DNA from: Thiospirochaeta perfilievii
GTDB taxonomy: Bacteria > Spirochaetota > Spirochaetia > DSM-2461
NCBI RefSeq assembly: GCF_008329945.1
Contig: NZ_CP035807.1
Location: 2,728,001 to 2,792,000 of the forward strand
Direction: 5' to 3'
Length of the DNA stretch: 64,000 bases
Shown: in pieces, positions 2 to 58,475 of the stretch
Position numbering within the stretch: position 1 is the first letter of the stretch
Layout: each line of letters opens with the position of its first letter
Notes under the pieces: model-generated
What the model was told of the DNA's origin: nothing
The model's database searches: none
What the model saw: the letters and a program-made list of their open reading frames with translations, nothing else
Position numbers and translations under genes: made by a program

Positions 2-901
2 GGTGGTACAGCAGAGATATCTGGTTCTATAAAGTATAGACTATCCCTAGTTGAGGATACCCAGATAAGTTTACATGCTGATTATAAGTCCTATGAGGCT
101 GTAAAACAGGATCTTGTAAGACAGGTTGTTACCGAGGCATTAATGCAAACTGCAACTTTAATGAAAGCAGAGGAGTCCTACTCATCCAGGCGTTCAGAGT
201 TTACATCTTTAGCTGAAGAGCAGGTTAAGCTAGGAATCTTTGAGACTAGTTCAGAGGAAATTAAAACCAAAGATGCTGATGGCAACCAGTTTATAGAGAG
301 ATATGTTGAAGTTAAAGTAGGTCCTGATGGACAAAGATTGATAAGAAAAGAGTCGCCATTTGTTCGTTACCAAATAGAAGTTCTACAGTTTGTTATTAAG
401 GATATTGACTTTGATCAAACAATAGACTCCCTAATAGCAAAGAAAAAAGAAGCAGAGCAGCAGAGGGTAGTAGCTAAGGCAAATGCTGAGAGAGCTAAAC
501 AGGATGCAATAACTGCCGAGGAACAGGGTAAGGCAAAGGAAGCTGAAGCTAAAGCTTTAGAGAATGTTGAGAAGATAAAAGCAGTAACAAAGGCTGAAAA
601 AGAGCGGGATGTTGCTAATTTACGATATGAGACTGAAAAGCTAAATGCCCTAGCAACCCTAGAGAAAGCTAAGGCAGAGGCTGAGAAAAATAGACTCTTA
701 GTATCAGCGGGGTTAGCTCCTGAGATGGAAGCACAAATAAATAAAGAAGTAGCTATTGGCGTAGCTGCTGAATTAGCTAAAGTAAAATTCCCAGAGATGA
801 TGATTTTAGGTGGAAGTAATGGTGGGGCGTTAAACCCCTTTGATGCCGTTGGACTAGAATCCTTCCTTAAGATACAGAAAGAGTTTTCCGCCAAGGAATA
901 A
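2..901 (+). CDS. SPFH/band-7 (flotillin-like) protein, 5' end cut by window
   Basis: The reading frame is open from the first bases of the window, so the N-terminus is missing; the first internal Met is at 143. The visible part is the end of a band-7 domain followed by a long charged, Ala/Glu/Lys-rich helix (about 100 residues, rich in KAEA repeats) and a short Gly/Asn-rich tail. This is the usual flotillin/prohibitin-like architecture, in which membrane-anchored SPFH domains oligomerise through the coiled coil. No partner gene is visible downstream; a hairpin terminator follows at once. The family call is good; a specific role cannot be given. Confidence 0.8.
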   Translation, partial: GGTAEISGSIKYRLSLVEDTQISLHADYKSYEAVKQDLVRQVVTEALMQTATLMKAEESYSSRRSEFTSLAEEQVKLGIFETSSEEIKTKDADGNQFIERYVEVKVGPDGQRLIRKESPFVRYQIEVLQFVIKDIDFDQTIDSLIAKKKEAEQQRVVAKANAERAKQDAITAEEQGKAKEAEAKALENVEKIKAVTKAEKERDVANLRYETEKLNALATLEKAKAEAEKNRLLVSAGLAPEMEAQINKEVAIGVAAELAKVKFPEMMILGGSNGGALNPFDAVGLESFLKIQKEFSAKE

Positions 902-43575: not shown

Positions 43576-45158
43576 TTACCTAGGGTCACTGAAGGTTATT
43601 CGTGCAATAATATTCTGTTTTTCCTGGGGCATAATAAGATTAGAGTCCTTAATATACCCTTTAATCTGTTAATAATATTACCAAGGGATCTTGAGTAATC
43701 TACGTGTCCCAGCTTATCCATAGCTAAGTTAATAATTTCAAGATGAACTATTCCATTAATTGAGTGTATTTTTATTTCAATTTCTTTTTGTTCCATTTTA
43801 TTTAAACTGTATTTAAATGCATTTTCAGCAGGGGGTTGAAGTATAAATGGAGGAACAGGAATCTTTGATAATTCATCATCAATATTGTAAATAATTTCCA
43901 ATATATCAGGCCATCGTAGCTTCATTAAATCCAAATAATTTTTTAAAAAATTAACCTCTTCCTGTAGTTTAACAATTCTCTTATCGTTGAATTCGGTAAT
44001 AAAGTGGTAGTTATCAGATAGTAATTGTAAGCTTTCCATTGCACCCTTTGGGGACTCTAGTATTTGGTTAAAAATAATATTCATTGAGTTAAATAAGAAG
44101 TGGGGCTTCATTCTATTTTGTAATATTCGGTTGTTTGCATCAATTAATGCTTCCTCTGCTTCAAGTTTCTTGTTCTGTATCATTAGAACTCTATCACCTA
44201 ATGCAAAGGCCAATAATATTGACTCTACAACGGTTCCAAAATATATCGCATACTCTGTTAGAATATTATCTGGAAGCACATGCACCCTTCTTAGGGTTGT
44301 AGCTGCGGAACCTACAATTAGAAATATCCAGGCAACTATATAAAATCTTGCGGGCCTGTAACCCTTTAGGGATATGTATAATCCAGATAAAAATAGTAGC
44401 ATTATTCCATAAAAGAAGCATAGGGTCGTAAAATTAATAATAATTTCCGAAAGTGGTAACATGAATAAAAGAATATTTAATATAAATATTATAATTGTAA
44501 TGTTATATACTTTTAGAAGTTTTGAACTATAGGTTTTTACTGATAAAAATGACTTTGCAAAAAAGAGTACAAACACAAAGCTTAAAGACATAAATATATT
44601 GTAGTCTTTAGATAAAAACCAATGCCAATTAGGCCATAGGTAATATCTACCAAATCCTTCAACTGTAATGTCATACATTAACATGAAAAATATGTACAAA
44701 AAATAATATAGGTAATTTCGATCTTTGGTACTAATAAAAACTATAAGGTTGTAAAGTGCAATGGATATAATAGCTCCAAATACCCAAAAAAGGATTCTTT
44801 CATCCCTTATATTATCCTGAAAATAATTTAAAGCTCCGGTAATTTTTAGGCCTGTATGCATTTTTGATCTACTATCCACAGAAACATAGATATCAACTGG
44901 TTCATTAGCATTTAAGTAGACTTCGAAGGCTGGGCTTCTATGACTAAACTCTCTTTCTGAAAATTTAACATCACTTCCTGCTGAATCTATAACTATTTTG
45001 CCATTAGGAAACATTGCATAAAAATTTAGTCTATCTGCCTTTGTCCACCTACTAAAGATAATCCATGACCCACTTTCTTTAGCCTGTATCCTATAGCGTT
45101 CCCATACTCTACTTTTGGTTATTCCATGATCAAATTTAGTTTGAGTACTAAATTCCAT
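43576..45158 (-). pseudogene. 7TMR-DISM/LytS-type histidine kinase, frameshifted and 5' truncated
   Basis: The long frame (45158-43596) has part of a 7TMR-DISM extracellular domain, seven TM helices (~residues 120-320), a coiled coil, the phospho-His motif MKPHFLFNSMN and ATP-binding PPAENAFKYS. The frame upstream of 45158 stays open for some 20 codons but has no signal peptide, so the N-terminus is lost. Near 43667 the last ~25 residues move to another frame: one extra base in the local AAAGGG would give KDSNLI...ARITFSDP, a normal ATPase end, stopping at 43576. Both partners of this system therefore look decayed. Confidence 0.75.
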
Positions 45159-45390
45159 ATTGTAGATAGTATCTATAGAATATTCTCTATTTTCATCAAA
45201 TAGCCACTGCCCTTTGTTTCATAATTTTTTTATTTCATATTTATTAGTGATTTTTTTGAGTTTCTAGTGAATTTAAATTGGTAGTAAGAATTATAATTAA
45301 AAATAATAAGTAATTTTTTTTGCATATTGATATTATGAGTCAACACTTTTATTTATATCAAGCTTTTTTTATTAAAAATTCTTTTATAGT

Positions 45391-46676
45391 CTATCATAGC
45401 TGTCCAAAACAAAAAAACTACAATTTAAGTATTTTATAAAAGTAATCTCCAAGGTATAATCTAAGTACCACACAAAGCACACACAAGGAGATTACTATGA
45501 GTTTTCATGATACTATTTTTCGACAAATACTACAATTAATTCCGAGATATGAATTTGAAAAAATTGTAAAATCAGAAAAAGGAGACTTCGCGAATAAAGG
45601 ATTTTCCTGTTGGAACCAGTTTTCAGCAATGCTATTTGCTCAATTAAGCGGACAAACAGGTCTAAGGGGAATTGAGAACGGTTTAGAGCTTCAAAGTAAA
45701 AAGCTGTATCATTTAGGGATATCCAAAACTAAACGCTCAACGCTCTCTTATGCAAATAATAATCGTCCAAATGAGATCTATGAAAAACTATTTTACTCTT
45801 TATTATCAAAGCTTCATAGTAAACATAAAAATCATAAATTTAGATTTAAAAACCCACTTTATAGCGTAGATGCGAGTACTATAGATCTTTGTCTGAGCAT
45901 GTTTGATTGGGCTCATTTTAGGAAAAAGAAGGGAGGAATTAAACTCCATGTGACATTAGATCATTCCAGTTATATTCCCTCATTTGTTACTGTGACGGAT
46001 GCAAAAGTACATGAATCTAATGAAATTAAAAATGTTCCTTTTAAAAAAGATGATGTTATTGTTTTTGATAGAGGGTATACCGATTACCAATATTATTCAG
46101 ATTTAGGTGAAGAAGGTATTTATTTTGTTACAAGACTGAAGAAAAATGCCAAATATTCTGTGCTTGACGATAAAGACGTTTCAAAGTATGAAAATATACT
46201 GTCTGAAAAAATCATAGTTTTTGATAAAATAATATCTAAGAAAGGAAAGCCTCTAAAACTGCGGCTTGTTGAAAGTTATGATCCTGATTTGAAGAAAAGT
46301 ATAACACTAATTACAAATCACTTTTCATGGTCCCCCAGAACTATTTCAGCAATATATAAAGATAGATGGCAAATTGAAATTTTCTTCAAAACAATTAAGC
46401 AAAACCTAAAAATTAAAAGCTTTTTAGGAACAAGTCGAAATGCGGTTCTAACTCAAGTTTGGATCGTTATGATTTCGTTTCTGATATTGAAATATATGGA
46501 ATTTCAATCTACTTTAGGTTGGACTGTATCTTCAATAATGGCTATATTATCTACGATATTATTTGCAAATCTAAACTTAATTGATTGGTTAACAGTCCCG
46601 CCTGATAAACAAGCTCCACAGAAAAGTTATCTGCTACAAAAGGAGTTGTTTTGATTGTATTGGACAGCTATGATAG
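45391..46676 (+). mobile_element. IS4-family insertion sequence with inverted ends
   Basis: CTATCATAGCTGTCCA at 45391-45406 and its complement at 46661-46676 form perfect 16-bp inverted repeats; five more bases match outside after one mismatch. Inside is one full transposase. No clear target duplication is seen. The region 45159-45390 to its left is very AT-rich and I see no gene in it. Confidence 0.85.
45497..46654 (+). CDS. IS4-family DDE transposase
   Basis: 385 aa. The DDE triad is visible: Asp in YSVDASTIDL, Asp in VIVFDRGYTDY, and Glu in the YREK motif (YKDRWQIEIFFKTIK). N-terminal FANKGFSCWNQFSAMLFAQL matches the DUF4372 domain common in this IS4 subgroup. The frame is intact and an AAGGAG ribosome site precedes the ATG, so the element may be functional. 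Confidence 0.92.
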   Translation: MSFHDTIFRQILQLIPRYEFEKIVKSEKGDFANKGFSCWNQFSAMLFAQLSGQTGLRGIENGLELQSKKLYHLGISKTKRSTLSYANNNRPNEIYEKLFYSLLSKLHSKHKNHKFRFKNPLYSVDASTIDLCLSMFDWAHFRKKKGGIKLHVTLDHSSYIPSFVTVTDAKVHESNEIKNVPFKKDDVIVFDRGYTDYQYYSDLGEEGIYFVTRLKKNAKYSVLDDKDVSKYENILSEKIIVFDKIISKKGKPLKLRLVESYDPDLKKSITLITNHFSWSPRTISAIYKDRWQIEIFFKTIKQNLKIKSFLGTSRNAVLTQVWIVMISFLILKYMEFQSTLGWTVSSIMAILSTILFANLNLIDWLTVPPDKQAPQKSYLLQKELF

Positions 46677-46725
46677 TCTATATTTAAACAGGAAAGGTGT
46701 CTGAATTTAGAGAACGTAAACTAAA

Positions 46726-46754
46726 TTGCATTTAACAGTTGGTTAATGTATAAT
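46726..46754 (+). promoter_or_regulatory. Promoter of the five-gene AAA/PD-(D/E)XK operon
   Basis: TTGCAT (46726-46731) and TATAAT (46749-46754) with a 17-bp spacer, then GGAG 8 nt before the ATG at 46778. No other promoter is seen before the later copies, which overlap each other. Confidence 0.75.
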
Positions 46755-46777
46755 AAAAGCATCCTGGAGTAAATAGA

Positions 46778-48349
46778 ATGAAAAATCTACCTATTGGTAT
46801 AAGTAATCTAAACATGATAATAGAAAATAATCTTGTTTATGTAGATAAAACAGAAATTGCTTATAATTTAATTAAATCTCCTGGGCGTTATTTTTTATCT
46901 AGGCCTAGACGTTTTGGTAAATCCCTGTTCCTGGATACTTTAAAGGAGATATTTGAAGGTAATAAAGATCTTTTTAAAGGCCTTTTTATTTACGACAATT
47001 GGGACTGGGACAAAAAATATCCTGTTATAAAAATTGATTTTGCAGGTGGTTCTGTAAAGAACATTAAAGATCTTAATAATAAAATCCAGGCAAATATTAA
47101 CCATTATAAAAACCTGTATAATATCCAGTTAAATGAAACAGGTATATCCAATCAATTTAATGAATTAATATTCAAAATTCAGGATAAATTCTCATCTAAG
47201 GTTGTTGTACTAATTGATGAATATGATAAACCTCTTTTAGATAATATAGAAAATCCTGAAATGGCAATGGAAATTAGGGAAGGCTTAAAGAATTTTTATT
47301 CTGTATTTAAAGAACAGGATGCTAATATTCAGTTTGTATTTTTAACTGGTGTTAGTAAATTCAGTAAAGTTAATATCTTTTCTGGAATTAATAACCTTGA
47401 GGATATTACACTTAATAAAGATTATGCAACAATTTGTGGCTATACTCAAAATGATCTAGAAGTTTACTTTAAGGAACATCTTGAAGGGGTTGATAGGGAA
47501 CTACTAAAAAACTGGTATAACGGTTATAATTTTCTAGGCAATGGGTATGCATCTGCTGTATATAATCCCTTTGATATATTACTTTTTCTAAGTAATGGTA
47601 AGACCTACAGAAATTACTGGTTTGAAACAGAGACACCCACTTTTTTAATTAAATTACTCAAAAAAAACAATTATTTTTTACCTGACTTATCTAATGTTGA
47701 AGTTGGAGAAGAAATATTAAGTTCCTTCGAAATTGATTCGATATCAATTATAACTTTACTTTTCCAAACTGGGTATTTAACTATTGATAGTGTTGATGAT
47801 AGTATGGGAAAACAGTTTTATAGTCTAAAAATACCTAATAATGAGGTAAAAATAGCCTTAAATGATTATATAATTACTGCTTACACCGATCTTAATGAGC
47901 AAAAAACTCCGATACAAAAAAGTACTTTTAGTGCCTTAAAAAGTGGGGATTTTAAAAGCCTTGAAAAAACGATAATTAGACTTTTTGCAGGGATTCCATA
48001 CCGAAACTTTACAAAAAACAAGATGTATGAATACGAGGGTTATTATGCCTCTGTTCTCTATGCCTTCTTCTCTGCTATAAACTGTGATGTAATACCTGAG
48101 GATATTACAAACCATGGACAAGTAGATATGACTATTAAACTTGGTAGTACTATTTGTGTTATGGAGATTAAAACCACTACTAATTTTGAACCAAATTCCC
48201 AAAACCTTGCCCTAAAGCAAATACAGGATATGGATTACGCTAAAAAGTACCTAGGAATAACGAACACCACCACAGTCTATGAACTAGGCCTAGTCTTTGA
48301 TATGGATAAACGAAACTTGGTTCAGTTTGATTGGAGAATAAGAAGATGA
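46778..48349 (+). CDS. AAA-ATPase-like/PD-(D/E)XK nuclease-like protein, copy 1
   Basis: 523 aa. N-terminal AAA-ATPase_like domain with Walker A-like RPRRFGKS (residues 42-49) and Walker B LIDEYD (145-150). C-terminal PDDEXK_9-like domain with Asp450 (QVDMTI) and Glu463-x-Lys465 (MEIK). The family (AAA-ATPase_like plus PDDEXK_9) is widely expanded in anaerobes and has no established function. By segments, this copy has the NLNMIIEN type of N-terminus, type A middle (92-138) and type alpha C-terminal middle (293-402). It leads a five-gene operon directly downstream of the IS4 element; stop and next start overlap as ATGA. Confidence 0.9.
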   Translation: MKNLPIGISNLNMIIENNLVYVDKTEIAYNLIKSPGRYFLSRPRRFGKSLFLDTLKEIFEGNKDLFKGLFIYDNWDWDKKYPVIKIDFAGGSVKNIKDLNNKIQANINHYKNLYNIQLNETGISNQFNELIFKIQDKFSSKVVVLIDEYDKPLLDNIENPEMAMEIREGLKNFYSVFKEQDANIQFVFLTGVSKFSKVNIFSGINNLEDITLNKDYATICGYTQNDLEVYFKEHLEGVDRELLKNWYNGYNFLGNGYASAVYNPFDILLFLSNGKTYRNYWFETETPTFLIKLLKKNNYFLPDLSNVEVGEEILSSFEIDSISIITLLFQTGYLTIDSVDDSMGKQFYSLKIPNNEVKIALNDYIITAYTDLNEQKTPIQKSTFSALKSGDFKSLEKTIIRLFAGIPYRNFTKNKMYEYEGYYASVLYAFFSAINCDVIPEDITNHGQVDMTIKLGSTICVMEIKTTTNFEPNSQNLALKQIQDMDYAKKYLGITNTTTVYELGLVFDMDKRNLVQFDWRIRR

Positions 48350-49914
48350 AAAACCTACCTGTTGGGATAAGTACATTATCTAAATTGCTAGAAAACAATA
48401 TGGTTTATGTCGATAAAACAGAAATTGCATACAAACTTATACATAAAGCTGGAGCATATTTTTTATCTAGGCCTAGAAGATTTGGTAAATCTTTGTTCCT
48501 AGATACTTTAAAGGAGATATTTGAAGGTAATAAAGATCTATTTAAAGGTCTTTTTATTTACGATAATTGGGACTGGAATAAAAAATATCCTGTTATTAAA
48601 ATTGATTTTGCAGGTGGTTCTGTAAAGAACATTAAAGATCTTAATAATAAAATCCAGGCAAATATTAACCATTATAAAAACCTGTATAATATCCAGCTAA
48701 ATGAAACAGGTATATCCAATCAATTTAATGAAGTAATATTCAAAATTCAGGATAAATTCTCATCTAAGGTTGTTATTCTAATTGATGAATATGATAAACC
48801 CTTACTTGATAATATCGAAAATCCTGAAATGGCAATGGAAATTAGGGAAGGCTTAAAGAATTTTTATTCTGTAATTAAAGAACAGGATGCTAATATTCAG
48901 TTTGTATTTTTAACTGGTGTTAGTAAATTCAGTAAGGTAAATATTTTTTCCGGTATTAATAACCTTGAGGATATTACACTTAATAAAGATTATGCAACAA
49001 TTTGTGGCTATACTCAAAATGATCTAGAAGTTTACTTTAAGGAACACCTTGAAGGGGTTGATAGGGAACTACTAAAAAAATGGTATAACGGTTATAATTT
49101 TTTAGGCAATGTGCATACATCTGCTGTATATAATCCCTTTGATATATTACTTTTTCTAAGTAATGGTAAGACCTACAGAAATTACTGGTTTGAAACAGGA
49201 ACTCCTACCTTTCTAATTAAACTGTTCCAAAAAAACAATTATTTTCTACCTGATCTTAATGACATAGAAGTTGGAGAAGAAATACTTAGTTCCTTTGACA
49301 TTGATAATATTGAACCTACAACCCTACTGTTTCAATCTGGTTATTTAACTATAAAGGAAGTAACCACTGTTATGGGAAGGTTAAAATTTAAGTTACAGTT
49401 TCCAAATTTCGAAGTAAAAACATCATTTAATGAATACCTTATAAATGGTTATACTTTTTATACCACCCAGAAGATGAAATTAGAGGAATCCATATATAAT
49501 TCTTTACAAAGTGGCTCCTTTGATACACTAGAAAAAACTATATCCCGTATTTTTGCAGGGATTCCATACCGAAACTTTACAAAAAACAAGATGTATGAAT
49601 ACGAGGGTTATTATGCTTCTGTTCTCTATGCCTTCTTCTCTGCTATAAACTGTGATGTAATACCTGAGGATATAACAAACCATGGACAAGTAGATATGAC
49701 TATTAAACTTGGTGACACTATTTGTGTTATGGAGATTAAAACCACTACTAATTTTGAACCAAATTCCCAAAACCTTGCCCTAAAGCAAATACAGGATATG
49801 GATTACGCTAGAAAGTACCTAGGAATAACGAACACCAAAGTCTATGAACTAGGCCTAGTCTTTGATATGGATAAACGAAATTTGGTTCAGTTTGATTGGA
49901 GAATAAGAAGATGA
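48346..49914 (+). CDS. AAA-ATPase-like/PD-(D/E)XK nuclease-like protein, copy 2
   Basis: 522 aa from the ATG overlapping the previous stop; the frame reaches back to 48331, but MKNLPVG matches the start of copy 1. Walker A, Walker B and the D/ExK nuclease motif are intact. Segment types: N-terminus TLSKLLEN with IHKAGAY, middle type A, C-terminal middle type beta (LNDIEVGEEILSSFDID, VMGRLKFKLQ). It also has VHTSA at about residue 257 where copy 1 has GYASA. Confidence 0.9.
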   Translation: MKNLPVGISTLSKLLENNMVYVDKTEIAYKLIHKAGAYFLSRPRRFGKSLFLDTLKEIFEGNKDLFKGLFIYDNWDWNKKYPVIKIDFAGGSVKNIKDLNNKIQANINHYKNLYNIQLNETGISNQFNEVIFKIQDKFSSKVVILIDEYDKPLLDNIENPEMAMEIREGLKNFYSVIKEQDANIQFVFLTGVSKFSKVNIFSGINNLEDITLNKDYATICGYTQNDLEVYFKEHLEGVDRELLKKWYNGYNFLGNVHTSAVYNPFDILLFLSNGKTYRNYWFETGTPTFLIKLFQKNNYFLPDLNDIEVGEEILSSFDIDNIEPTTLLFQSGYLTIKEVTTVMGRLKFKLQFPNFEVKTSFNEYLINGYTFYTTQKMKLEESIYNSLQSGSFDTLEKTISRIFAGIPYRNFTKNKMYEYEGYYASVLYAFFSAINCDVIPEDITNHGQVDMTIKLGDTICVMEIKTTTNFEPNSQNLALKQIQDMDYARKYLGITNTKVYELGLVFDMDKRNLVQFDWRIRR

Positions 49915-51479
49915 AAAACCTACCTGTTGGGATAAGTACATTATCTAAATTGCTAGAAAACAATATGGTTTATGTCGATAAAACAGAAATTGCATACAAA
50001 CTTATACATAAAGCTGGAGCATATTTTTTATCTAGACCCAGAAGATTTGGTAAATCTTTGTTCCTTGATACTTTAAAGGAGATATTTGAAGGTAATAAAG
50101 ATCTATTTAAAGGTCTTTTTATTTATAATAATTGGGACTGGGACAAAAAATATCCTGTTATAAAAATTGATTTTGCAGGTGGTTCTGTAAAGAACATTAA
50201 AGATCTTAATAATAAAATCCAGGCAAATATTAACCATTATAAAAACCTGTATAATATCCAGTTAAATGAAACAGGTATATCCAATCAATTTAATGAATTA
50301 ATATTCAAAATTCAGGATAAATTCTCATCTAAGGTTGTTGTACTAATTGATGAATATGATAAACCTCTTTTAGATAATATAGAAAATCCTGAAATGGCAA
50401 TGGAAATTAGGGAAGGCTTAAAGAATTTTTATTCTATATTTAAAGAACAGGATGCTAATATTCAGTTTGTATTTTTAACAGGTGTTAGTAAATTCAGTAA
50501 AGTTAATATCTTTTCTGGAATTAATAACCTTGAGGATATTACACTTAATAAAGATTATGCAACAATTTGTGGCTATACTCAAAATGATCTAGAAGTTTAC
50601 TTTAAGGAACATCTTGAAGGGGTTGATAGGGAACTACTAAAAAACTGGTATAACGGTTATAATTTTCTAGGCAATGGGTATGCATCTGCTGTATATAATC
50701 CCTTTGATATATTACTTTTTCTAAGTAATGGTAAGACCTACAGAAATTACTGGTTTGAAACAGGGACACCAACTTTTTTAATTAAATTACTCAAAAAAAA
50801 CAATTATTTTTTACCTGACTTATCTAATGTTGAAGTTGGAGAAGAAATATTAAGTTCCTTCGAAATTGATTCGATATCAATTATAACCTTACTTTTCCAA
50901 ACTGGGTATTTAACTATTGATAGTGTTGATGATAGTATGGGAAAACAGTTTTATAGTCTAAAAATACCTAATAATGAGGTAAAAATAGCCTTAAATGATT
51001 ATATAATTACTGCTTACACCGATCTTAATGAGCAAAAAACTCCGATACAAAAAAGTACTTTTAGTGCCTTAAAAAGTGGGGATTTTAAAAGCCTTGAAAA
51101 AACGATAATTAGACTTTTTGCAGGGATTCCATACCGAAACTTTACAAAAAATAAGATGTATGAATACGAGGGTTATTATGCCTCTGTTCTCTATGCCTTC
51201 TTCTCTGCTATAAACTGTGATGTAATACCTGAGGATATAACAAACCATGGACAAGTCGATATGACTATTAAACTTGGTAGTACTATTTGTGTTATGGAGA
51301 TTAAAACCACTACTAATTTTGAACCAAATTCCCAAAACCTTGCCCTAAAACAAATACAGGATATGGATTACGCTAAAAAGTACCTAGGAATAACGAACAC
51401 ATCTGTTTATGAACTAGGCCTAGTCTTTGATATGGATAAACGAAACTTGGTTCAGTTTGATTGGAGAATAAAAAGATGA
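49911..51479 (+). CDS. AAA-ATPase-like/PD-(D/E)XK nuclease-like protein, copy 3
   Basis: 522 aa, start overlapping the copy 2 stop by 4 nt. Motifs are intact. It is a hybrid: N-terminus as in copy 2 (TLSKLLEN), middle type A, and the GYASA and type alpha C-terminal middle as in copy 1 (SVDDSMGKQFYSLK). The nucleotide identity to copy 1 in its second two-thirds is nearly complete, which points to recent recombination or duplication. Confidence 0.9.
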   Translation: MKNLPVGISTLSKLLENNMVYVDKTEIAYKLIHKAGAYFLSRPRRFGKSLFLDTLKEIFEGNKDLFKGLFIYNNWDWDKKYPVIKIDFAGGSVKNIKDLNNKIQANINHYKNLYNIQLNETGISNQFNELIFKIQDKFSSKVVVLIDEYDKPLLDNIENPEMAMEIREGLKNFYSIFKEQDANIQFVFLTGVSKFSKVNIFSGINNLEDITLNKDYATICGYTQNDLEVYFKEHLEGVDRELLKNWYNGYNFLGNGYASAVYNPFDILLFLSNGKTYRNYWFETGTPTFLIKLLKKNNYFLPDLSNVEVGEEILSSFEIDSISIITLLFQTGYLTIDSVDDSMGKQFYSLKIPNNEVKIALNDYIITAYTDLNEQKTPIQKSTFSALKSGDFKSLEKTIIRLFAGIPYRNFTKNKMYEYEGYYASVLYAFFSAINCDVIPEDITNHGQVDMTIKLGSTICVMEIKTTTNFEPNSQNLALKQIQDMDYAKKYLGITNTSVYELGLVFDMDKRNLVQFDWRIKR

Positions 51480-53044
51480 AAAACCTACCTATTGGAATAA
51501 GTAATCTAAGTATGATAATAGAAAATGATCTGGTCTATGTAGATAAAACAGAGACCGCTTTTAAATTAATTAAATCTCCAGGACGTTTTTTTCTATCTAG
51601 ACCCAGACGTTTTGGTAAATCTTTATTCCTTGATACTTTAAAGGAGATATTTGAAGGTAATAAAGATCTTTTTAAAGGCCTTTTTATTTACGACAATTGG
51701 GACTGGGACAAAAAATATCCTGTTATAAAAATTGATTTTGCAGGTGGTTCTGTAAAGAACAGTAAAGATCTTAATAATAAAATCCAGGCAAATATTAACC
51801 ATTATAAAAACCTGTATAATATCCAGTTAAATGAAACAGGTATATCCAATCAATTTAATGAATTAATATTCAAAATTCAGGATAAATTCTCATCTAAGGT
51901 TGTTATTCTAATTGATGAATATGATAAACCCTTACTTGATAATATCGAAAATCCTGAAATGGCAATGGAAATTAGGGAAGGCTTAAAGAATTTTTATTCT
52001 GTAATTAAAGAACAAGATACTAATATTCAGTTTGTATTTTTAACTGGTGTTAGTAAATTCAGTAAGGTAAATATTTTTTCCGGTATTAATAACCTTGAGG
52101 ATATTACACTTAATAAAGATTATGCAACAATTTGTGGCTATACTCAAAATGATCTAGAAGTTTACTTTAAGGAACATCTTGAAGGGGTTGATAGGGAACT
52201 ACTAAAAAACTGGTATAACGGTTATAATTTTTTAGGCAATGGGTATGCATCTGCTGTATATAATCCCTTTGATATATTACTTTTTCTAAGTAATGGTAAG
52301 ACCTACAGAAATTACTGGTTTGAAACAGGAACTCCTACCTTTCTAATTAAACTGTTCCAAAAAAACAATTATTTTCTACCTGATCTTAATGACATAGAAG
52401 TGGGAGAAGAAATACTTAGTTCCTTTGACATTGATAATATTGAACCTACAACCCTACTGTTTCAATCTGGTTATTTAACTATAAAAGAAGTCACAACTGT
52501 TATGGGAAGGTTAAAATTTAAGTTACAGTTTCCAAATTTCGAAGTAAAAACATCATTTAATGAATACCTTATAAATGGTTATACTTTTTATACCACCCAG
52601 AAGATGAAATTAGAGGAATCCATATATAATTCTTTACAAAGTGGCTCCTTTGATACACTAGAAAAAACTATATCCCGTATTTTTGCAGGGATTCCATACC
52701 GAAACTTTACAAAAAACAAGATGTATGAATACGAGGGTTATTATGCCTCTGTTCTCTATGCCTTCTTCTCTGCTATAAACTGCCATGTAATACCTGAGGA
52801 TATTACAAACCACGGCCAAGTAGATATGACTATTAAACTTGGTGACACTATTTGTGTTATGGAGATTAAAACCACTACTAATTTTGAACCAAATTCCCAA
52901 AACCTTGCCCTAAAGCAAATTCAGGATATGGATTACGCTAAAAAGTACCTAGGAATAACGAACACATCTGTTTATGAACTAGGCCTAGTCTTTGATATGG
53001 ATAAAAGAAATTTGGTTCAGTTTGATTGGAGAATAAGAAGATGA
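51476..53044 (+). CDS. AAA-ATPase-like/PD-(D/E)XK nuclease-like protein, copy 4
   Basis: 522 aa, start overlapping the copy 3 stop. Motifs are intact. Another hybrid: N-terminus of copy-1 type (NLSMIIEN, IKSPGRF), middle type A, GYASA, then type beta C-terminal middle as in copy 2. A few private changes include NCHVIP for NCDVIP ahead of the nuclease motif. Confidence 0.9.
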   Translation: MKNLPIGISNLSMIIENDLVYVDKTETAFKLIKSPGRFFLSRPRRFGKSLFLDTLKEIFEGNKDLFKGLFIYDNWDWDKKYPVIKIDFAGGSVKNSKDLNNKIQANINHYKNLYNIQLNETGISNQFNELIFKIQDKFSSKVVILIDEYDKPLLDNIENPEMAMEIREGLKNFYSVIKEQDTNIQFVFLTGVSKFSKVNIFSGINNLEDITLNKDYATICGYTQNDLEVYFKEHLEGVDRELLKNWYNGYNFLGNGYASAVYNPFDILLFLSNGKTYRNYWFETGTPTFLIKLFQKNNYFLPDLNDIEVGEEILSSFDIDNIEPTTLLFQSGYLTIKEVTTVMGRLKFKLQFPNFEVKTSFNEYLINGYTFYTTQKMKLEESIYNSLQSGSFDTLEKTISRIFAGIPYRNFTKNKMYEYEGYYASVLYAFFSAINCHVIPEDITNHGQVDMTIKLGDTICVMEIKTTTNFEPNSQNLALKQIQDMDYAKKYLGITNTSVYELGLVFDMDKRNLVQFDWRIRR

Positions 53045-54612
53045 AAAACCTACCTGTTGGGATAAGTACATTATCTAAATTGCTAGAAAACAATATGGTT
53101 TATGTCGATAAAACAGAAATTGCATACAAACTTATACATAAAGCTGGAGCATATTTTTTATCTAGGCCTAGAAGATTTGGTAAATCTTTATTCCTGGATA
53201 CTTTAAAGGAGATATTTGAAGGTAATAAAGATCTTTTTAAAGGCCTTTTTATTTATAATAATTGGGACTGGGACAAAAAATATCCTGTTATAAAAATTGA
53301 TTTTGCAGGTGGTTTTGTAAGAAATAGAGATGAACTTGATGTAATACTTAAAGAAAAATTTAATGCTATTAAAAAATATCATAATATTTCTATAGAATCT
53401 GAAACTGTTTCAGGTATATTCAGTGAGACAATTGGATCTCTTGCATCTAAATATTCTTCTAAAGTTGTTATTCTAATTGATGAATATGATAAACCCTTAC
53501 TTGATAACATTGAAAATCCTGAAATGGCAATGGAAATTCGTGATGGATTAAAAAGCTTTTATTCTGTAATTAAAGAACAAGATACTAATATTCAGTTTGT
53601 ATTTTTAACAGGTGTTAGTAAATTCAGTAAAGTTAATATCTTTTCTGGAATTAATAACCTTGAGGATATTACACTTAATAAAGATTATGCAACAATTTGT
53701 GGCTATACTCAAAATGATCTAGAAGTTTACTTCAAGGAACACCTTGAGGGTGTTGATAGGGAACTACTAAAAAACTGGTATAACGGTTATAATTTTTTAG
53801 GCAATGTGCATACATCTGCTGTATACAACCCCTTTGATATCCTACTTTTTATTAGTAATAATAGAAGTTACAGAAATTACTGGTTTGAAACAGGGACTCC
53901 TACTTTTCTAATTAAACTATTCCAAAAAAACAATTATTTTCTACCTGATCTTAATGACATAGAAGTGGGAGAAGAAATACTTAGTTCCTTTGACATTGAT
54001 AATATTGAACCGACAGCCCTACTTTTTCAGTCAGGGTATTTAACTATAAAAGAAGTCACAACTGTTATGGGAAGGCTAAAATTTAAGTTACAGTTTCCAA
54101 ATTTCGAAGTAAAAACATCATTTAATGAATACCTTATAAATGGTTATACTTTTTATACTACCCAGAAGATGAAATTAGAGGAATCCATATATAATTCTTT
54201 ACAAAGTGGCTCCTTTGATACACTAGAAAAAACTATAACTCGGATTTTTGCAGGGATCCCATACCGAAACTTTACAAAAAACAAGATGTATGAATACGAG
54301 GGTTATTATGCCTCTGTTCTCTATGCCTTCTTCTCTGCTATAAACTGCGATGTAATCCCCGAGGATATAACAAACCACGGCCAAGCTGATATGACTATTA
54401 AACTTGGTAACACCATTTGTGTTATGGAGATTAAAACCACTACTAATTTTGAACCAAATTCCCAAAACCTTGCATTAAAGCAAATACAAGATATGGATTA
54501 CGCTAAAAAGTACCTAGGAATAACGAACACCACTATCTATGAACTAGGCCTAGTCTTTGATATGGATAAAAGAAACCTTGTACAGTTTGATTGGAATGTA
54601 AGGGGGAATTAG
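53041..54612 (+). CDS. AAA-ATPase-like/PD-(D/E)XK nuclease-like protein, copy 5
   Basis: 523 aa, last gene of the operon. N-terminus of copy-2 type, but residues ~92-138 are of a different type (B: FVRNRDELDVILKEKF, SGIFSETIGSLASKY), seen in no other copy. VHTSA and type beta follow; the catalytic region reads QADMTI where the others have QVDMTI. The 157 bp after the stop hold only a short open tail (54616-54714) and a terminator. Confidence 0.9.
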   Translation: MKNLPVGISTLSKLLENNMVYVDKTEIAYKLIHKAGAYFLSRPRRFGKSLFLDTLKEIFEGNKDLFKGLFIYNNWDWDKKYPVIKIDFAGGFVRNRDELDVILKEKFNAIKKYHNISIESETVSGIFSETIGSLASKYSSKVVILIDEYDKPLLDNIENPEMAMEIRDGLKSFYSVIKEQDTNIQFVFLTGVSKFSKVNIFSGINNLEDITLNKDYATICGYTQNDLEVYFKEHLEGVDRELLKNWYNGYNFLGNVHTSAVYNPFDILLFISNNRSYRNYWFETGTPTFLIKLFQKNNYFLPDLNDIEVGEEILSSFDIDNIEPTALLFQSGYLTIKEVTTVMGRLKFKLQFPNFEVKTSFNEYLINGYTFYTTQKMKLEESIYNSLQSGSFDTLEKTITRIFAGIPYRNFTKNKMYEYEGYYASVLYAFFSAINCDVIPEDITNHGQADMTIKLGNTICVMEIKTTTNFEPNSQNLALKQIQDMDYAKKYLGITNTTIYELGLVFDMDKRNLVQFDWNVRGN

Positions 54613-56711: not shown

Positions 56712-58475
56712 TTAGTTTGTAATGGTTACTCTGAAATTTTTTGAATAATACTGACCATCAGTATCTTTTATTAACAGTGTGAATAATTGAGTTCCGATAT
56801 CATTTGACGAAACGTTTATACTTATGCTCTTGCCCCAAAACGTTCTTCCATAATAATCTTCATCTCTGTAGTTCCACTTGTAGTCAGAATCATTATCAGA
56901 AAATATTTCTGCAACCGATAGTTCCATAGTGTCTCCAACTTTGTAGGTATCCTGTAGACCGATAATAGTTATGGTTTTGTCTACAGTTCCTTCTATGGTT
57001 ACTCCTACTGTTTGGTTCGGGGAAAATTTAGCATAGAATACTTTGTTTCCTGTGGAACCTTGTGCTATAGATGTAACTACAGAATCAGAGAAGTCATCAG
57101 TGGTGTACCAACCGTTAAAAGTGTAGTTTGTTTTAGTAGGGTTTAGTAAGGTAATTGTATCAGTCTCTACAGTGTAAGTTGCTGGGTTAGCAGCATTAGT
57201 ACCATCATTTAGGTTATAGGTAATAGAGTAGGTTATAGGGGTGAATTTTGCATAGAATACTTTGTTTCCTGTGGAGCCTTGTGCTATAGACGTAACTACA
57301 GAATCAGAGAAGTCATCTGTGGTGTACCAACCGTTAAAAGTGTAGTTTGTTTTAGTAGGGTTTAGTAAGGTAATTGTATCGGTCTCTACAGTGTATGTAG
57401 CTGGGTTAGCAGCATTAGTACCATCATTTAGGTTGTAGGTTATATCGTAGTTTATAGCAGAATACTTAGCAAATAAAGTAGTATCCATAGTTACTACATC
57501 TGTGGAAAAATTCCATTTATTTGTGTAAGAATCTTCTTTGTACCAGTCTATAAAAGTATACCCATCTTTTACAGGTTCAACTGGAGCAGTAATTTTTTCA
57601 TTTTCCTCTTGTGTAATGTCAGAAATTACAGATCCACCATTTGTATTAAATGATACCTTGTATTCATTAGGTGGAAGAATTTCCCATTTTGCAAATAAAG
57701 TTGTATTTTCAGTAACTTTATCAGTAGAAAAATTCCATACGTTAGTTAAACTATCTTCCTTGTACCAATTAATAAAGGAATATCCATCCCTTGTTGGGTT
57801 AGAAGGAGAAGAAATTGTAGAATCTTTTGGAGCTTTTATACTGGAAACATTAGTTCCTTGATTACTATTAAATGTAATAGTAAAGTATTCTATTTTATAC
57901 GATGAACTTGAAACAGAACTATTATTCATTCCATCTTTAATTCCAATAGCCTTAATTGTAATCTCTGCACCATCATTCTTTATTTCTATAGGAGAAGAGT
58001 ATAAAGTTGAGCTACTAGTTGGTTCTTCATTGTTAAGTGTATAATAAATAGAGCAATTCTCAGTTTCTGAAGTTAAAGAAACTGTTATATCAGAGTTGTA
58101 AGTACCCTCAGTAACAGAGAAGGTTATATTCTTTACAGATTCAGCAGCTTCTTCTTTTAAGGTGTAGTTAAAAATTGTCATTGCACTGGAAAGATAACCA
58201 TCCTTAATTGCAATAGATTTAATTGTTAAATCTTTGTCTAAAAGTATTGGACTAGAATAAACAAAGTCATCAACTGTTGGTTCTTCATTATTTAAAGTGT
58301 AATAAATGGTTACCCCATTGGTTTCACAACTTAACGTTATTTCCTTTTGTTCTGAATACTCTCCAGGTTCTAGAGAGGATTTTACACAGGCGATACTTTC
58401 ATCAATATCTGGGTTACAGGATAGAATTAGCAATGATGAAAGGAAAATAAAAATCATTTTAAAATATAGTTTCAT
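56712..58475 (-). CDS. Repeat-rich lipoprotein with CHB_HEX and InlB-type repeats
   Basis: 587 aa. Lipoprotein signal with lipobox LILSC. Two chitobiase/hexosaminidase C-terminal-like repeats (~30-105 and ~115-195; each has IYYTLNNEEPT), then four InlB/Flg_new-type B-repeats (~200-485; DGYSFINWYKEDS, YTFNGWYTTDD). The last two B-repeats are nearly identical at 73 aa each. An Ig-like domain closes the protein. A surface-exposed, extended adhesin-like protein; binding partner unknown. Confidence 0.8.
   Translation of the reverse strand: MKLYFKMIFIFLSSLLILSCNPDIDESIACVKSSLEPGEYSEQKEITLSCETNGVTIYYTLNNEEPTVDDFVYSSPILLDKDLTIKSIAIKDGYLSSAMTIFNYTLKEEAAESVKNITFSVTEGTYNSDITVSLTSETENCSIYYTLNNEEPTSSSTLYSSPIEIKNDGAEITIKAIGIKDGMNNSSVSSSSYKIEYFTITFNSNQGTNVSSIKAPKDSTISSPSNPTRDGYSFINWYKEDSLTNVWNFSTDKVTENTTLFAKWEILPPNEYKVSFNTNGGSVISDITQEENEKITAPVEPVKDGYTFIDWYKEDSYTNKWNFSTDVVTMDTTLFAKYSAINYDITYNLNDGTNAANPATYTVETDTITLLNPTKTNYTFNGWYTTDDFSDSVVTSIAQGSTGNKVFYAKFTPITYSITYNLNDGTNAANPATYTVETDTITLLNPTKTNYTFNGWYTTDDFSDSVVTSIAQGSTGNKVFYAKFSPNQTVGVTIEGTVDKTITIIGLQDTYKVGDTMELSVAEIFSDNDSDYKWNYRDEDYYGRTFWGKSISINVSSNDIGTQLFTLLIKDTDGQYYSKNFRVTITN
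57031..57468 (-). repeat. Tandem 219-bp repeat inside the lipoprotein gene
   Basis: Two in-frame copies of 219 bp (57031-57249 and 57250-57468) encode 73 residues each (NLNDGTNAANPATYT and YTFNGWYTTDDFSDS), nearly identical at the base level except toward the outer ends. This suggests recent duplication and scope for copy-number change. Confidence 0.85.

What the first reader, a model, noticed from the sequence alone, without database searches (positions are those of the whole stretch)
46778..54612. Five-gene array of AAA/PD-(D/E)XK paralogs built from shuffled segments
All copies keep Walker A, Walker B and D/ExK residues, and are almost identical at the base level in shared blocks. Three blocks come in two clear versions: N-terminus (copies 1,4 versus 2,3,5), residues 92-138 (1-4 versus 5) and 293-402 (1,3 versus 2,4,5). 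Every copy has a distinct combination. The genes overlap as ATGA from one promoter. This looks like a recombining set whose variable parts may set specificity while the ATPase and nuclease stay constant. The family is known but unexplained; a defence, competition or genome-plasticity role is speculation.
Basis: partly seen in the sequence, partly recalled or inferred. Interest (0 to 1): 0.8.

Follow-up and report, generated by a model that had tools for sequence, protein, structure and literature searches.

The report
Cassette-shuffled tandem ATPase–nuclease gene array
Five nearly identical, overlapping bacterial genes each encode an ATP-driven switch joined to a DNA-cutting enzyme, and they differ by swapping the same few internal pieces that unrelated bacteria also swap, as expected of a receptor family that keeps its machinery constant and reshuffles what it senses; the function itself is untested.

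Summary
Five in-register copies (period 1565-1568 nt, four ATGA overlaps) of a DUF1703-type protein (PF09820 ATPase + PF08011 nuclease) are true mosaics: PHI p<=0.0005, and blocks that copies share are nearly identical at silent sites too. The copies carry five different combinations of three cassettes: N (residues 10-38), V1 (94-139), V2 (303-402). The coincidence exceeds chance (circular-shift p=0.0002), also after correcting for family-wide conservation. In 65 genes of one genus I count 51 cassette combinations. The ATPase half of a confident AlphaFold model best matches STAND/NLR-type switches (SSO1545 Z 15.5; RPP1, CED-4, Apaf-1, Avs3); the C-terminus matches CidB/CinB nucleases. With no sensor repeats, the variable cassettes are the likely sensing or partner surfaces. 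I favour a stand-alone ATP-gated nuclease receptor, probably against mobile elements, diversified by cassette gene conversion. Function is inference; a selfish element or neutral homology-limited conversion remain live. Recombination among DUF1703 paralogs was already reported in Cardinium; the fixed cross-phylum cassette map appears new.

The parts
46778..48349 (+). copy 1, DUF1703-type STAND-like ATPase + PD-(D/E)XK nuclease (523 aa); cassettes N-A, V1-A, V2-A
48346..49914 (+). copy 2 (522 aa); cassettes N-B, V1-A, V2-B
49911..51479 (+). copy 3 (522 aa); cassettes N-B, V1-A, V2-A
51476..53044 (+). copy 4 (522 aa); cassettes N-A' (87% nt to c1), V1-A, V2-B
53041..54612 (+). copy 5 (523 aa); cassettes N-B, V1-B, V2-B; its end has lost the ATGA overlap and the internal Shine-Dalgarno
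46805..46891 (+). N cassette (residues 10-38) in copy 1; same offset in copies 2-5 (48373-48459, 49938-50024, 51503-51589, 53068-53154)
   Evidence: HMM segmentation; coordinates by arithmetic from gene starts
47057..47194 (+). V1 cassette (residues 94-139), two-helix insert in the ATPase domain, copy 1; same offset in copies 2-4 (48625-48762, 50190-50327, 51755-51892)
53320..53457 (+). V1-B, the alternative V1 allele of copy 5 (50% nt, 29% aa to V1-A), predicted isostructural
47684..47983 (+). V2 cassette (residues 303-402) type A, copy 1; type A also in copy 3 (50817-51116)
49252..49551 (+). V2 cassette type B, copy 2; type B also in copies 4 (52382-52681) and 5 (53947-54246)
46749..46769 (+). 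putative start signals of the array: TATAAT (46749-46754) and Shine-Dalgarno GGAG (46766-46769)
   Evidence: read from sequence; no promoter proven
48326..48349 (+). junction copy 1/2: TTTGATTGGAGAATAAGAAGATGA; the Shine-Dalgarno of the next gene lies inside the end of the previous one; same at 49911, 51476 (one base different), 53041
45385..46682 (+). IS4-family insertion sequence with 23-bp terminal inverted repeats (45385-45407 / 46660-46682), ending 95 bp before copy 1; four copies in the genome
   Evidence: neighbour, not part of the array

Best explanation
The array is a locally amplified set of single-gene, cytosolic, STAND-like (NLR-like) ATPase switches carrying a C-terminal PD-(D/E)XK nuclease. 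Shown: tandem copies in register, retention of all catalytic residues, and reassortment of whole cassettes (N, V1, V3, V2) by recombination between copies, with crossovers in the conserved motif-coding stretches, at the same positions in unrelated bacteria. Inferred: because the protein has no sensor repeats, the variable helical cassettes in the nucleotide-binding, helical and winged-helix parts are the surfaces that recognise a trigger or partner; the trigger (most likely a phage, plasmid or other mobile-element product) releases the ATP switch, the protein assembles, and the nuclease cuts DNA. Gene conversion between tandem and dispersed copies keeps a repertoire of recognition surfaces on a constant engine, and translational coupling makes the five variants together.
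For: Mosaicism: PHI p<=0.0005, conflicting splits per block, the shared nuclease block differs at only 1-6 of about 40 fourfold sites whereas V2 classes differ at 9-13 of 18-20. Same cassette borders in independent sets: HMM borders 10-13..36-39, 94..136-140, 203-207..277-279, 338-402; circular-shift p=0.0002, also with family conservation regressed out and with 7 lineages only. The nuclease (family conservation 0.57) is homogenised within arrays although N (0.60) and V3 (0.63) are more conserved across the family but do swap. Dispersed paralogs: G204 L162/L172 are 99-100% over 141-420 but 48% at 101-130; G069 L152/L154/L156 reassort N, V1 and V3 three ways. 51 combinations of 16/28/19/19 N/V1/V3/V2 alleles in 65 genes. 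V1 within the window (25-29% aa between alleles) is as diverse as between genomes of many phyla (mean 26%). Fold: model pLDDT 88.9; nearest solved structures are archaeal AAA+/STAND ATPases 2fna Z 15.5 and 2qen Z 15.2, then RPP1, CED-4, Apaf-1, Avs3, Avs5; the C-terminus matches CidB/CinB at Z 11-12. Alternative alleles keep the same secondary structure. No conserved neighbour gene, consistent with a single-gene device. No signal-like or membrane segment by a simple hydropathy scan.
Against: No functional data. No match to a known defence system (PADLOC, only a weak hit to a PD-(D/E)XK segment), and no clear enrichment of defence genes around homologues. Classical STAND receptors carry superstructure repeats, which are absent here. 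The cassette borders fall at the most conserved motifs, so homology-limited gene conversion alone could place them. Sister paralogs on a Calditerrivibrio plasmid are not mosaic.
Confidence: 0.42

Rival explanations
1. A selfish or mobile NTPase-nuclease gene (like the prokaryotic NTPase-REase elements proposed as source of Crinkler/CR effectors and Medea) that spreads by its own nuclease; array and mosaics are by-products of its spread and of repair between copies.
For: Patchy presence: 25 other genomes of its taxonomic family lack a full copy while the window genome has 11 hits, all within about 125 kb. In genome G374 two ORFs are 99.8% identical with unrelated flanks from start and stop codon outward. 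The nuclease fold matches CidB/CinB, whose REases were linked to CR-type mobile elements (PMC11342252). Found on plasmids.
Against: No terminal repeats or target duplication seen at gene ends (not searched exhaustively). Fixed cassette swaps at four internal sites and high V1 diversity are not predicted by simple mobility. Full-ORF gene conversion explains identical ORFs with different flanks equally well.
Confidence: 0.25
2. Neutral homology-limited gene conversion: conserved motif-coding stretches keep recombining and are homogenised, divergent stretches escape and drift apart, so cassettes appear without any specificity role; the protein does some housekeeping or DNA-processing task.
For: Cassette borders coincide with Walker A, Walker B, the TGVSKFSK region and the YEGYY region; mean low-identity occupancy anticorrelates with family conservation, r=-0.54.
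Against: The positional signal survives regression on family conservation (p=0.0002), and the nuclease, less conserved across the family than N or V3, is homogenised whereas N and V3 swap. Whole divergent cassettes are copied between genes, for example V1-A at 98-100% in four copies, and many alleles persist.
Confidence: 0.22
3. Secreted or interbacterial/host-directed nuclease effectors, as suggested for the Cardinium expansion.
For: Cardinium DUF1703 proteins were predicted to be secreted (PMC6387759).
Against: No signal-like or hydrophobic N-terminus in any of the five; no secretion or immunity partner next to the array.
Confidence: 0.06
4. Plain tandem duplication with uneven substitution rates and no recombination.
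For: The copies are in register with constant period.
Against: Conflicting splits with PHI p<=0.0005, and silent-site identity in shared blocks next to strong silent divergence in V2.
Confidence: 0.01

Closest known systems
DUF1703 family (PF09820 AAA-ATPase_like + PF08011 PDDEXK_9; Knizewski et al. 2007, PMC1913061)
   Same: Both domains, RPRRFGKS Walker A, DEYD Walker B, the four nuclease motifs, about 520 aa.
   Different: The family paper describes domains only; here the members form a coupled tandem operon of cassette mosaics.
Cardinium cCpun DUF1703 expansion (Siozios et al. 2019, PMC6387759)
   Same: Many paralogs in one genome with intragenic recombination shown by RDP4 and PHI.
   Different: That report gives divergent (mean 39% aa) paralogs and, in the passages read, no fixed cassette map, operonic array or cross-phylum recurrence; it suggested secretion, for which nothing is seen here.
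STAND/NLR-type ATPases (SSO1545, PABY2304, Apaf-1, CED-4, RPP1, Avs3/Avs5)
   Same: Fold of nucleotide-binding, helical and winged-helix parts (Z 10.5-15.5); switch plus effector logic.
   Different: Effector nuclease at the C-terminus, no superstructure repeats, sequence identity only 8-14%; signature motifs not tested.
Type I restriction HsdS target-recognition-domain shuffling (from general knowledge)
   Same: Constant engine, recombining specificity cassettes at fixed places.
   Different: No methyltransferase or restriction partner; cassettes lie within an ATPase-nuclease itself.
CR (Crinkler-type) NTPase-REase proteins and CidB/CinB nucleases
   Same: NTPase plus REase architecture; C-terminal nuclease matches CidB/CinB by fold (Z 11-12).
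   Different: No eukaryotic header domain or CidA-like partner gene seen; family membership at sequence level not tested.

Membership tests
[quoted passage not shown]
   E 4e-62 to 7e-64, 210-216 bits against 26.1, all five copies
DUF1703 (PF09820 + PF08011) | C-terminal PDDEXK_9 nuclease with E, D, E-x-K, Q | tested here: met
   57-64 bits against 25.5; residues present in all copies, E420, D450, E463, K465 invariant in 54 homologues
Recombining DUF1703 paralog set (as in Cardinium) | intragenic recombination between paralogs | tested here: met
   PHI p<=0.0005; HMM segments
STAND/NLR-type NTPase | NBD, helical and winged-helix arrangement | tested here: met
   by predicted fold only: 2fna Z 15.5 over 283 residues, 3.9 A; several NLRs Z 10-13
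STAND/NLR-type NTPase | superstructure-forming sensor repeats (TPR, WD, LRR) | tested here: not met
   only two Pfam domains; the model shows linker helices then the nuclease. Hence not filed as a classical STAND receptor
STAND/NLR-type NTPase | clade signature motifs of the NTPase module | not tested
   no STAND profile comparison was made
STAND/NLR-type NTPase | trigger-induced oligomerisation and effector activation | not testable with these tools
   needs biochemistry
Known anti-phage system (PADLOC-DB 2.0.0) | match to a curated defence protein over its full length | tested here: not met
   only a partial PD-(D/E)XK hit, E 1e-4 to 5e-3
HsdS-type restriction specificity switch | co-encoded methyltransferase/restriction subunits | tested here: not met
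   no conserved neighbour around homologues and none flanking the array
CR-type NTPase-REase element | membership of a CR-NTPase/CR-REase clade | not tested
   source paper (Zhang et al. 2016) not held; fold match of the nuclease to CidB/CinB only

The most novel reading that the evidence does not exclude
A widespread bacterial repertoire of minimal NLR-like ATPase-nuclease receptors whose recognition surfaces are four cassettes at fixed positions, reassorted combinatorially by gene conversion within and between loci: a prokaryotic analogue of recombining plant NLR clusters, without separate sensor domains.
Probability: 0.3. Interest if true: 0.87.

Novelty: new variant of a known kind. Interest (0 to 1): 0.66.

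Why it matters
DUF1703 genes occur in more than a quarter of sampled genomes of this class (112 of 395) and across many phyla, often in 10 or more copies, with no known function. A fixed cassette map with natural allele swaps turns 'unknown paralog expansion' into a directly testable question: swap V1 or V2 between copies that are otherwise nearly identical and ask what changes. If the cassettes read out invader identity, this would be a combinatorial innate immune repertoire in bacteria.

Tried and rejected
Same-genus and same-family genomes lack the gene, so strain-level comparison of this array was not possible. The flanking histidine kinase has no clear ortholog in relatives, so no empty site could be defined. 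No homologue of solved structure was found by sequence. Simple correlation of mean third-position profiles between pairs of arrays was mostly weak because different arrays vary in different cassettes; the HMM segmentation replaced it. Calditerrivibrio plasmid copies show one recent duplicate and three diverged members, no mosaic. The two three-copy arrays in genus g30 (L131, L132) share only 172 bp outside the array, so they are not clearly syntenic. Neighbour screening found no partner family. PF09820 hits in RADAR/PARIS/Old-Tin are listed in a review table (PMC10952713) but those are different architectures and were not used as evidence.

Full report
Observation. The five ORFs exist at the stated coordinates, in register with a 1565-1568 nt period and four ATGA overlaps. 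At every junction the 3' end of one gene (GGAGAATAAGAAGATGA, with A for one G at 51476) supplies the Shine-Dalgarno sequence of the next, while the end of copy 5 has lost it. This suggests amplification by unequal crossing-over and coupled translation (inference). All copies carry PF09820 and PF08011 and intact catalytic motifs. The genome is held in 2 contigs and the copies differ by many private sites (116 in copy 5), so an assembly artefact is unlikely.

Mosaicism. Pairwise nucleotide identity along the genes jumps between about 93-100% and 45-65%. Copies group as 1,4 / 2,3,5 at the N-terminus, 1-4 / 5 at 92-140, and 1,3 / 2,4,5 at 285-402. Of informative site pairs, 34% are incompatible; PHI is 0.119 against 0.345 (sd 0.007), p<=0.0005. 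The shared nuclease block is nearly identical at fourfold sites (1-6 differences of about 40), whereas V2 classes differ at 9-13 of 18-20 such sites, so the pattern is recent common ancestry by block, not protein constraint. Small tracts at 144-157, 197-203 and 256-258 show additional conversion.

Recurrence elsewhere. A genome-collection search gave 80 loci from many phyla, the nearest at 65% identity from a MAG titled Spirochaetes bacterium GWE1_32_154. Several loci hold tandem or near-tandem copies: Chlorobiaceae L032 (five) and L039, Cloacimonadota L043, Desulfobacter L061, and class relatives L131-L134. Sliding identity within these sets drops at the same places. Sixty-five further paralogs from five genomes of one genus of the same class (g30, unnamed in the tool) show it in dispersed genes too: L152, L154 and L156 of one genome are mostly 93-100% alike except at N, 81-140 and 201-280, which reassort three ways; L162/L172 are 99-100% over 141-420 but 48% at 101-130. 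A two-state HMM puts borders at 10-13 to 36-39, 94 to 136-140, 203-207 to 277-279, and 302/338 to about 402 in 11 groups; coincidence by circular shift p=0.0002, unchanged after regressing out family-wide conservation and with seven lineages. Group independence is approximate. Alleles at 80% identity: N 16, V1 28, V3 19, V2 19; 51 combinations in 65 genes. V1 and N are the most loosely linked to the rest (r 0.13-0.42), while V2 and the nuclease are tightly linked there (r 0.85), so V2 is less of a free cassette in that genus than in the window. A Calditerrivibrio plasmid with five members shows no mosaics.

Anatomy. AlphaFold2 with 54 sequences gives pLDDT 88.9, pTM 0.87. N is the helical lead-in to the Walker A strand; V1 is a two-helix hairpin between strand 83-87 and the Walker B strand; V3 is the helical domain; V2 is the winged-helix-like unit and linker helices; 405-523 is the nuclease. 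Copy 5, with the other V1 and V2 alleles, is predicted with the same elements (pLDDT 87.9), so alleles change surface chemistry on a constant scaffold (inference). By VIA-align the closest solved folds are archaeal 2fna and 2qen (Z 15.5, 15.2), then NLR and apoptosome proteins and Avs3/Avs5 (Z 10.5-13.3); ORC proteins follow at about Z 11, so the STAND assignment rests on the top rows and on coverage of residues 2-362. The C-terminus matches CidB/CinB at Z 11-12. V1 has no column conserved at 95% or more in the family.

Context. The window genome has 11 hits, all on one strand within about 125 kb; three of the other loci sit next to nucleotidyltransferase/HEPN-type genes. Twenty-five relatives of the taxonomic family have no full copy, so the genes were probably gained horizontally. 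An IS4-family element with 23-bp inverted repeats and four genomic copies ends 95 bp before copy 1. Around 131 neighbour genes of homologues there is no recurrent partner: no Pfam family in more than 3, consistent with single-gene function. PADLOC hits among neighbours are isolated.

Interpretation. Shown: tandem array, intact enzyme motifs, cassette recombination, recurrence of cassette positions. Inferred: cassettes are recognition or partner surfaces; nuclease release by an ATP switch; defence. The main alternatives are a selfish NTPase-nuclease gene and neutral homology-limited conversion. The latter is weakened because the nuclease domain, less conserved across the family than N or V3, is homogenised while those swap, but the borders do lie at conserved motifs and it cannot be excluded.

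Known and new. The family and its domains are known (PMC1913061), and recombination among paralogs has been reported in Cardinium without function (PMC6387759). I found no report of the fixed, cross-phylum cassette map or the STAND-like anatomy of DUF1703 in the searchable library, which lacks most subscription papers and the CR-effector paper, so the novelty claim is provisional.

Noticed in passing
window 45385-46682: IS4-family insertion sequence with 23-bp inverted repeats, three identical and one 98% copy in the genome, inserted 95 bp before the array.
   Followed up: yes
window 43596-45158 (-): 7TMR-DISM sensor histidine kinase gene next to the IS; the C-terminal ATPase part was not detected by Pfam and the N-terminal domain match starts at profile position 30, so the gene may be degraded at both ends.
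   Followed up: no
window 57019-57456: Adjacent 219-nt direct repeat (94%) inside a List_Bact_rpt (Flg_new) repeat protein at 56712-58475.
   Followed up: no
L013 and L014 (G000:C1 2833000-2852500 and 2880000-2899900): Five more full DUF1703 genes and a fragment (2848627, with an in-frame stop) near polysaccharide genes; two of them (L014:10942 and L014:17682) share 99-100% identical 41-138 and 285-402 blocks but differ at N, a second mosaic set.
   Followed up: partly
L013:2126-2898, L014:7636-8449, L019:10-785: Nucleotidyltransferase plus HEPN/HepT-like gene pairs (the L019 partner had no Pfam hit) next to three of the other DUF1703 genes of the same genome.
   Followed up: partly
L179 and L180 (G374): Two DUF1703 ORFs 99.8% identical over 1608 nt with unrelated flanks immediately outside start and stop codons: ORF-sized duplication or full-length gene conversion.
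   Followed up: partly
G069 (one 2.8-Mb contig): At least 23 dispersed DUF1703 genes in one genome of the same class.
   Followed up: partly
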